Shown here in pieces: positions 18,775 through 19,476 of a stretch of 64,000 nucleotides of DNA. Both the position numbers and the translations under genes were made by a program. Below the pieces are notes generated by a model. The model was given only the letters and a program-made list of their open reading frames with translations, made no database searches and was not told the origin of the DNA. Every line of letters begins with the position of its first letter. Within the stretch, counting starts at the first letter, position 1. This DNA comes from Rossellomorea vietnamensis (GTDB lineage Bacteria > Bacillota > Bacilli > Bacillales > Bacillaceae_B). The DNA lies in the NCBI RefSeq assembly GCF_025398035.1, contig NZ_CP104558.1, positions 620,001-684,000 of the forward strand, in the 5' to 3' direction.

Positions 18775-18921
18775 ACCATCCACTCCATTAATTACGTGTA
18801 TGTATACAGATTATCATGTTTTAAACGGATTAGAAAAAGAAACTGTGTCGGAAAAAGGAATATGGCATGTAATTAGGATATGGCATCATTCATTGACCCT
18901 AGCTTCATGTCTAATTCAAAG

Positions 18922-18949
18922 TTGACAACTAGGAATAGTTTGATATAAC
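18922..18949 (+). promoter_or_regulatory. Promoter of the S-box leader
   Basis: A perfect TTGACA, a 16-base spacer and TATAAC, about 30 bases before the riboswitch P1 stem. Confidence 0.6.
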
Positions 18950-18979
18950 ATATAATAGAATTCTGATAACCACATAGCC

Positions 18980-19085
18980 ACTTATCCAGAGAGGTAGAGG
19001 GACTGGCCCGATGATACCTCAGCAACAGATTCTATTTTCTAGAAAACTGTGCTAATTCCACAAGCGTTAAGCTTGAAAGATAAGT
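18980..19085 (+). ncRNA. SAM-I (S-box) riboswitch aptamer
   Basis: The conserved S-box core is complete. The P1 arms are ACTTATC (18980-18986) and GATAAGT (19079-19085). Between them are CCAGAGAGGTAGAGGGACTGG, CCCGATGATACCTCAGCAAC, a variable P3, GTGCTAATTCC, AAGCGTTAAGCTT and GAAAGATAAG. S-boxes bind S-adenosylmethionine and normally switch off methionine and cysteine metabolism genes. Here it sits in front of a small FbpA-like gene. Confidence 0.93.
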
Positions 19086-19134
19086 TGAAGTTTTCCATTC
19101 AAGCCTTCTTCTTATCTTACTAGGAAGTAGGCTT
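19077..19134 (+). promoter_or_regulatory. Expression platform: mutually exclusive antiterminator and terminator-like stems
   Basis: AAGCCT-t-CTTC (19101-19111) pairs with GAAG-t-AGGCTT (19124-19134). In the alternative fold AAGATAAG..GAAG (3' side of P1) pairs with CTTC..CTTATCTT inside that hairpin. The T tract after the hairpin is poor. CCTCT (19156-19160) can also pair with the AGAGG of the ribosome binding site (19177-19181), so control may be partly translational. Confidence 0.6.
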
Positions 19135-19191
19135 AATTACATTAAAAAGTCTCTTCCTCTGTTTATTTACATTATAAGAGGAGTGATCATA

Positions 19192-19407
19192 ATGGGAGAA
19201 AATCTCCAAGAAGCAATCAATAAAAAAAGAAATGAGTTAATTAACAAATTGATTGTCCATAACATTTTCAAAAAAGGTAATAAACAATTATTTGAGCTGA
19301 CACTTAGAGAACTTGAGGATGAATATCACTTTATTCAGAAGGATTGCCATCCTCATAGTGATGTCGGCTCTATTCACTGGAAGAATTGCACGAATCTAAC
19401 CAGTTAG
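19192..19407 (+). CDS. FbpA-like small basic protein (Fur_reg_FbpA family)
   Basis: A 71-residue protein whose first 45 residues match the Fur-regulated basic protein FbpA family (NLQEAINKKRNELINKLIVHNIF, then LFELTLRELEDEYHF). In B. subtilis FbpA is induced by iron starvation and helps iron-sparing regulation, with a poorly known mechanism. This copy has a C-terminal tail with Cys and His residues (CHPHSDVGSIHWKNC) that could bind metal. The ATG at 19192 follows AGGAG by 8 bases. The surprise is control by an S-box instead of, or besides, Fur. No clear Fur box was seen. Confidence 0.7.
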   Translation: MGENLQEAINKKRNELINKLIVHNIFKKGNKQLFELTLRELEDEYHFIQKDCHPHSDVGSIHWKNCTNLTS

Positions 19408-19440: not shown

Positions 19441-19476
19441 AAAAAAATGACGCGGGCCTATGGCTCACGTCATTTC
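19441..19476. terminator. Bidirectional terminator
   Basis: AAATGACG / CGTCATTT with inner GGGCC / GGCTC pairing lies between the FbpA-like and spoIIP genes, with A and T runs outside. Confidence 0.8.

What the first reader, a model, noticed from the sequence alone, without database searches (positions are those of the whole stretch)
18922..19407. S-box (SAM) riboswitch in front of an FbpA-like iron-sparing small protein
Seen: a complete S-box core with P1 18980-19085, a consensus promoter upstream, and the 71-residue gene directly downstream. S-boxes are known to control methionine, cysteine and SAM genes, while FbpA is known as a Fur-controlled iron-response protein. A SAM-controlled FbpA paralog would link sulfur/methyl supply to iron or FeS handling. 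The Cys/His-rich tail is also not standard for the family.
Basis: partly seen in the sequence, partly recalled or inferred. Interest (0 to 1): 0.78.

Follow-up and report, generated by a model that had tools for sequence, protein, structure and literature searches.

The report
Sulfur-starvation switch on FbpA gene
A small gene from a family named for iron starvation sits directly behind an RNA element of the SAM-sensing class, here and in relatives spread over ten bacterial families, so it is likely switched on by sulfur shortage rather than by iron shortage.

Summary
A complete S-box (RF00162, 85.3 bits, window 18979-19086) precedes a 71-residue protein of Pfam Fur_reg_FbpA (50.9 bits, cut-off 22). 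The genome is a Rossellomorea relative. The pairing is not local: 21 of 24 matches to this protein in 36 genus genomes have the S-box, and so do 22 of 58 FbpA loci examined outside the genus, ten GTDB families in all. In one genus genome gene and aptamer are decayed together. New here: the promoter carries a near-palindrome (18912-18936) that matches the box before the yrrT-mtnN-mccA-mccB operon of the same genome, an operon that CymR represses in B. subtilis. Two sulfur signals, cysteine and SAM, are therefore predicted to control the gene. No Fur box (9 of 14 letters; a relative scores 14); the protein is not basic (pI 7.0). Of 21 genus leaders the window alone has lost the terminator U-run (longest T run 2 against 4-7); a helix over the ribosome site is predicted to carry the switch. 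What the protein does is unknown; a sulfur-sparing helper is inference.

The parts
18912..18936 (+). Near-palindromic operator TAATTCAAAGTTGACAACTAGGAAT over the -35; predicted CymR site
   Evidence: Core AGTTGACAACT..GAATA invariant in six aligned genus leaders; same box before yrrT in the same genome; weak likeness to the B. subtilis cysK CymR site quoted in PMC11487621
18922..18949 (+). Promoter: TTGACA, 16 bases, TATAAC (second hexamer by eye)
18979..19086 (+). SAM-I riboswitch aptamer (S-box, RF00162)
   Evidence: 85.3 bits, E 9.4e-19
19077..19118 (+). Predicted antiterminator helix, arms 19077-19090 and 19105-19118; competes with P1 and with the terminator helix
19101..19134 (+). Terminator-type hairpin, arms 19101-19112 and 19123-19134; of 21 genus leaders only this one lacks a U-run
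   Evidence: helix supported by covariation; longest T run 2 here, 4-7 in the 20 others
19122..19158 (+). Predicted anti-occluder hairpin, arms 19122-19136 and 19145-19158
   Evidence: folds; covariation inconclusive
19149..19187 (+). Predicted helix that covers the ribosome-binding site, arms 19149-19160 and 19177-19187
19192..19407 (+). FbpA-family gene, 71 aa (PF13076) with HPH...SIxW tail
   Evidence: 50.9 bits; orthologs
19445..19475 (.). Hairpin AAATGACGCGGGCC-TAT-GGCTCACGTCATTT between fbpA and the convergent spoIIP; probable terminator for fbpA
   Evidence: by eye

Best explanation
A SAM-type riboswitch stands directly before an FbpA-family gene in this genome and in relatives from ten GTDB families (its own included), and the gene is predicted to be turned on when SAM is low (riboswitch) and when cysteine is low (a likely CymR operator at the promoter), so that its small protein likely serves in sulfur starvation. 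Predicted working: (1) with cysteine plentiful, CymR with CysK sits on 18912-18936 and blocks the -35; (2) when transcription starts, SAM closes P1 of the aptamer, which leaves the terminator-type hairpin and the helix over the ribosome-binding site free to form, and expression is off; (3) without SAM the P1 strand pairs instead with 19105-19118, which opens the terminator hairpin, whose released arm pairs with 19145-19158 and uncovers the ribosome-binding site. In relatives step 2 would end transcription at a U-run; in the window strain that run is lost and the ribosome-site helix is predicted to carry the control. (4) The protein, by analogy with B. subtilis Fbp proteins, likely helps an RNA-based or protein-based response that spares costly sulfur or Fe-S proteins. 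Shown: the elements and their conservation. Predicted: steps 1-3. Inferred, weak: step 4.
For: S-box and FbpA at these coordinates. Genus: protein found in 23 of 36 genomes, 24 matches; S-box over the cut-off before 20 of the 20 relatives plus the window, 0 of the 3 (L046 a relic; L047, L048). Outside the genus: S-box before 11 of 19 loci, 8 of 19 and 3 of 20, that is 22 of 58, in nine further GTDB families (labels). Joint decay in one genus genome: aptamer down to 32.5 bits with many broken pairs, gene broken by a TAA. On a tree of 84 FbpA proteins the S-box label needs 12 changes against about 28 when shuffled. Operator: the best score in 420 shuffled bases reaches 16 of 23 with frequency 0.009; 30 of 41 S-box members reach it and 7 of 45 others; none of the other 13 S-box genes of this genome does, in the 210 bases checked. 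A box of the same form stands before yrrT in 29 of the 30 genus loci fetched, the 30th being cut and unread. CymR represses yrrT-mtnN-mccAB in B. subtilis (PMC3519770, passages); mtnN and mccB recognised here. In L085 the next long frames after fbpA are cysJ and cysI, with an S-box of their own between. Folding: ribosome-site letters unpaired 0.02 with P1 forced, 0.41 with P1 barred. Of 10 other S-box target genes scanned (of 13), 7 match methionine/SAM families, 6 of them over a curated cut-off, 3 match nothing.
Against: The operator pattern with up to 3 mismatches gives fewer sites (39) than its reversed control (79), so no genome-wide CymR regulon was recovered; cymR itself was not searched for. 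Likeness to the cysK site is weak: 14 of 27 letters for the window site (shuffled mean 8.6, P 0.018), and another register nearby scores 15. The operator consensus was made from some of the loci scored. The 58 outside loci were picked from the top of the list, which favours S-box relatives. The anti-occluder helix has weak covariation support (79 of 500 shuffles reach its percentage paired, 19 of 500 its covariation score). The predicted gain in ribosome-site access exceeds 0.10 in 10 of 21 leaders only; it is 0.10 or less in 6 (L029, L035, L038, L039, L042, L043) and reversed in 5 (L037, L040, L041, L044, L045). A covered ribosome site is not special to this gene: of 10 other S-box leaders folded, L002, L003 and L009 stay at or below about 0.12 and L008, L011, L013 below 0.29. 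No evidence on protein function: model of low confidence (pLDDT 68), no fold match.
Confidence: 0.57

Rival explanations
1. The protein acts on sulfur or methionine enzymes directly, for example as a small regulator or metal chaperone of sulfite reductase, and has nothing to do with RNA or with sparing.
For: cysJ-cysI follow fbpA in L085; HPH...SIxW tail invariant in 23 aligned orthologs; for FbpB no experimental evidence of RNA binding, and the Fbp functions are called unresolved (PMC7430163, passages).
Against: No conserved operon partner: in the genus the neighbours are protoporphyrinogen oxidase and, in most loci, spoIIP, in the outside loci looked at they differ. The tail is absent in 10 of 41 S-box members.
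Confidence: 0.25
2. It is an ordinary iron-sparing FbpA whose control has merely been rewired; its targets are still the FsrA-type iron targets and SAM is a proxy for Fe-S demand.
For: Same Pfam family as the Fur-type FbpA genes; FbpA/B/C are proposed to support FsrA in B. subtilis (PMC12871923, passages).
Against: No Fur box; not basic; the own genome keeps two other PF13076 genes without S-box that could fill an iron role, although no Fur box was seen before those either (8 and 9 of 14); a clear Fur-type FbpA exists apart from the S-box type (L185, 14 of 14).
Confidence: 0.2
3. In the window strain the riboswitch is losing its function: without the U-run the leader is read through constitutively.
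For: Longest T run 2 against 4-7 in 20 genus relatives; 12 of the 13 other S-box leaders of this genome show a run of four or more T after a hairpin, by reading (L005 was not shown there).
Against: Aptamer intact at 85.3 bits; the ribosome-site helix is still predicted to switch; where the gene is lost the aptamer has visibly decayed (L046).
Confidence: 0.15
4. FbpA is a distant cousin of the Spo0E two-helix phosphatases and acts on a phosphorylated regulator.
For: The only PDB sequence match of the family profile up to E 10 is 2bzb (E 1.1), recalled to be a Spo0E-like protein.
Against: hhalign probability 1.2% against five Spo0E-like proteins of this genome, a shallow profile; no fold match.
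Confidence: 0.03

Closest known systems
S-box / SAM-I riboswitch (RF00162)
   Same: Aptamer full length, over cut-off; in genus relatives the usual antiterminator/terminator platform
   Different: Target is an FbpA-family gene, not a methionine/SAM gene; window copy lacks the U-run and has a further predicted helix over the ribosome site
B. subtilis FbpA/FbpB/FbpC (iron-sparing response, proposed helpers of sRNA FsrA)
   Same: PF13076 domain as in FbpA, small size
   Different: No Fur box, not basic, HPH...SIxW tail, sulfur-type control elements
CymR regulon (cysteine metabolism repressor, Rrf2 family)
   Same: Promoter box of the same form as before yrrT in the same genome
   Different: CymR binding untested; no regulon recovered by pattern; combined with a riboswitch
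Clostridium acetobutylicum ubiG operon (T-box plus S-box antisense)
   Same: Cysteine and SAM signals meet on one sulfur locus (PMC2940859, passages)
   Different: There by T-box and antisense RNA; here a predicted operator and a leader in series

Membership tests
SAM-I riboswitch RF00162 | Covariance-model match over gathering score with the full aptamer | tested here: met
   85.3 bits, positions 1-108
SAM-I riboswitch RF00162 | Expression platform with exclusive helices | tested here: inconclusive
   Terminator helix supported, U-run lost in the window, anti-occluder helix weakly supported
SAM-I riboswitch RF00162 | Binds SAM and changes expression | not testable with these tools
   needs probing or reporters
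Pfam Fur_reg_FbpA PF13076 | Profile score over the curated cut-off | tested here: met
   50.9 against 22 bits
Fur-regulated basic protein (functional class) | Fur box at the promoter | tested here: not met
   best 9 of 14 letters, the commonest value in shuffles; L185 scores 14 of 14 in the same scan
Fur-regulated basic protein (functional class) | Basic protein | tested here: not met
   pI 6.96, net charge 0
Fur-regulated basic protein (functional class) | Works with an FsrA-type sRNA | not testable with these tools
   no expression data
CymR regulon | CymR-type box overlapping the promoter | tested here: inconclusive
   same box form as yrrT in the same genome, but only 14 of 27 letters shared with the cysK site and no regulon by pattern
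CymR regulon | CymR binding and derepression on cysteine loss | not testable with these tools
   needs a shift assay
CymR regulon | cymR gene in the genome | not tested
Spo0E-like PF09388 | Profile similarity | tested here: not met
   hhalign probability 1.2%

The most novel reading that the evidence does not exclude
Bacillales own a sulfur-sparing arm built like the iron-sparing one: FbpA-family small proteins put under two sulfur sensors in series, CymR for cysteine at the promoter and an S-box for SAM in the leader, which retune translation of sulfur-rich or Fe-S proteins when sulfur runs out. The leader passes the SAM signal down a chain of five mutually exclusive helices to both termination and ribosome access, and the window strain is a natural allele caught in the change from termination control to translation control.
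Probability: 0.28. Interest if true: 0.82.

Novelty: new variant of a known kind. Interest (0 to 1): 0.64.

Why it matters
Databases label these proteins 'Fur-regulated basic protein FbpA', yet many of the loci examined here carry an S-box, and the one in hand no Fur box. That makes the unsolved role of the Fbp proteins (called unresolved in PMC7430163 and PMC12871923, passages seen) testable from a new side, sulfur starvation. It would also tie SAM and cysteine supply to a family described in those passages only for iron sparing, and it offers a natural series of leaders in which riboswitch output may move between termination and translation.

Tried and rejected
Fur box for this gene: 28 upstream regions scanned (own gene 9 of 14), repeated with a positive control. 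A first operator pattern built on the palindrome and a half-site pattern gave few useful sites, of those most inside long frames; the box shared with yrrT came from reading. A relic S-box before L069, suspected by eye, has no covariance-model support and is dropped. Spo0E kinship: not supported. AlphaFold model (pLDDT 68) and PDB fold search (best E 4.5): uninformative. The idea that a covered ribosome site is special to fbpA among the S-box genes of this genome was rejected.

Rows dropped or picked: the 39 loci were chosen by hand from the top of the list, passing over some tandem copies and near-duplicate genomes; lower matches were not examined. L074 was misread in the table (wrong anchor) and does not enter; L046 is too short for them; L026, L041 and L048 were left out of the tree as well; the window itself is not among the 41. 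L241 was cut and not read for the yrrT box; L232 was misread and recovered; one search prints 'of 17' where the maximum is 18. In one search the hit reported for the window is the anti-occluder hairpin, not the terminator helix, so the count there is 35 of 43 rather than 36.

Print check: none of the titles and abstract starts listed shows a link of S-box and FbpA; the lists were capped (for example 20 of 111, 3 of 3) and the library holds open-licence papers only. Even 2006 on CymR is not held. PMC3766115 has no 'FbpA' in its main text and PMC4342826 no 'Fur-regulated'; supplements were not read.

Full report
What is there. The window (620001-684000 of a 4.52-Mb one-contig genome) holds one Rfam match over threshold: a SAM-I riboswitch at 18979-19086 + (85.3 bits). 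After 105 bases begins a 71-residue gene that matches Fur_reg_FbpA. The named relatives found are Rossellomorea species and one Bacillus sp.. The gene stands alone: protoporphyrinogen oxidase diverges upstream, spoIIP converges downstream, and a hairpin at 19445-19475 lies between (by eye).

Conservation in the genus. The protein is found in 23 of 36 genus genomes, 24 matches. The 20 relatives given to all have the S-box on the same strand upstream; the window makes 21 of 24. The three others are L046, L047 and L048. L046 is telling: at 32.5 bits its aptamer is below the cut-off with many broken pairs, and its gene is broken by a TAA, while protoporphyrinogen oxidase and spoIIP are still in place. 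Gene and switch have decayed together there.

Conservation outside. A profile search of 397 genomes of the order found the family in 113. I examined 58 loci outside the genus, picked from the top of that list. S-boxes over threshold precede 11 of 19, 8 of 19 and 3 of 20. They lie in GTDB families f11, f15, f20, f22, f23, f26, f41, f43 and f47; with f1 of the window that makes ten. By equal contig lengths, three are Heyndrickxia acidiproducens, Caldibacillus lycopersici and a Sporolactobacillus (inference). On a tree of 84 FbpA proteins the S-box label needs 12 changes, at least 4 by well-supported branches, against a shuffled mean of about 28; the tree is poorly resolved. The link was thus gained or lost several times; some genomes keep an S-box copy beside a copy without one (G358, G395).

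Promoter. The -35 lies inside TAATTCAAAGTTGACAACTAGGAAT (18912-18936). Its core is invariant in six genus leaders. The same 16 fixed letters with the same spacing stand 56 bases before yrrT of the yrrT-mtnN-mccA-mccB operon of the same genome, and these two are the only exact matches in 4.52 Mb. The pattern was made from the two, so its exactness is built in; that no third place matches is not. A box of this form stands before yrrT in 29 of 30 genus loci fetched, the 30th unread. In B. subtilis CymR represses this operon (PMC3519770, passages), so I predict CymR control. Against: likeness to the CymR site of cysK quoted in PMC11487621 is weak, 14 of 27 letters for the window site (shuffled mean 8.6, P 0.018) and 13 for yrrT, and another register in the window scores 15; L067 shares 17 of 27. 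With 3 mismatches the pattern is rarer than its reversed control (39 against 79), so no regulon emerges; one 2-mismatch site (L195) precedes what looks like a TauE/SafE exporter (name recalled). L163, L186 and L047 carry a similar box (17 to 20 of 23) without an S-box.

Leader. Five helices exclude each other in a chain: P1, antiterminator, terminator hairpin, anti-occluder, and a helix over the ribosome site. With P1 forced, the ribosome-site letters of the window are unpaired with probability 0.02, with P1 barred 0.41; the terminator goes from 0.99 to 0.27 and the antiterminator from 0.00 to 0.73. Of 21 leaders, 10 gain more than 0.10 in access, 6 gain less, 5 lose. The terminator helix is supported by covariation (0 of 500 shuffles reach its score); the anti-occluder is not decided. 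The window alone lost the U-run: longest T run 2 against 4-7 in the 20 others. By my hairpin-plus-U test, 7 of 43 S-box-fbpA leaders besides the window have no terminator (L070, L077, L080, L152, L153, L158, L166); in L070, L077 and L080, by eye, the ribosome site GGAGAG faces the CCTCTTC strand, which would be translational control. A covered ribosome site is predicted for other S-box genes too, so it is no mark of fbpA.

Protein. HPH, S60-I61 and W63 are invariant in 23 aligned sequences, the cysteines are not. An HPH/HPQ-type tail occurs in 31 of 41 S-box members and 9 of 45 others. The window protein has pI 6.96. The model (helices 3-22 and 38-52, pLDDT 68) says little, and no PDB fold matches it. 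L185, an FbpA gene without S-box, has a perfect Fur box: the iron type and the sulfur type exist side by side in the family.

Function. The Fbp proteins of B. subtilis are proposed, not shown, to be RNA chaperones of FsrA (PMC7430163 and PMC12871923, passages). Sulfur-type control, the company of cysJ-cysI in L085 and the fellow S-box targets point to sulfur starvation: of 10 scanned, 7 match methionine/SAM families (MetN under its cut-off; homoserine dehydrogenase, homocysteine synthase/OAH sulfhydrylase, a methionine-biosynthesis PLP enzyme, mtnW, mtnK and metK over one), 3 match nothing. That the protein spares sulfur or Fe-S cost is inference.

Verdict. A real and widely kept regulatory link that none of the paper listings I saw describes (capped lists, open papers only). 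Its parts are of known kinds; their combination and target appear new.

Noticed in passing
L072:1421-1441 and L079:1287-1307: Two HPH-tail fbpA genes without S-box share a leader block CGACTGG(A/T)TCAC(C/T)AGAGGCTC followed by a hairpin; no Rfam match over threshold. Possibly another attenuator.
   Followed up: partly
L088:3664-3960 (-) and L089:394-720 (+): Small protein (98 aa in L088, no Pfam match) with its own S-box, next to the S-box fbpA in two f22 genomes.
   Followed up: partly
L166:74-176 and 272-369: Two S-boxes in tandem before an fbpA gene, the second weak (60.3 bits).
   Followed up: no
G300:C1:464624-464740, G378, G359 and other f21 genomes: FbpA match inside an open frame of about 218 residues: perhaps a fused form.
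   Followed up: no
L008:1684-1839 (+): S-box before a 51-residue protein with no NCBIfam match in the window's genome.
   Followed up: partly
L012:1706-2782 (+): S-box before a lipoprotein that looks like an ABC substrate-binding protein; no NCBIfam match at 1e-40.
   Followed up: partly
L094:3245-3694 (-): An Rrf2-family regulator lies about 1.3 kb from an S-box fbpA, and a small sulfite/nitrite reductase domain protein (L094:6420-7046) on the other side.
   Followed up: partly
L185, about 30-45 bases before the gene: An fbpA without S-box with a perfect Fur box TGATAATGATTATCA: the iron type beside the sulfur type.
   Followed up: partly
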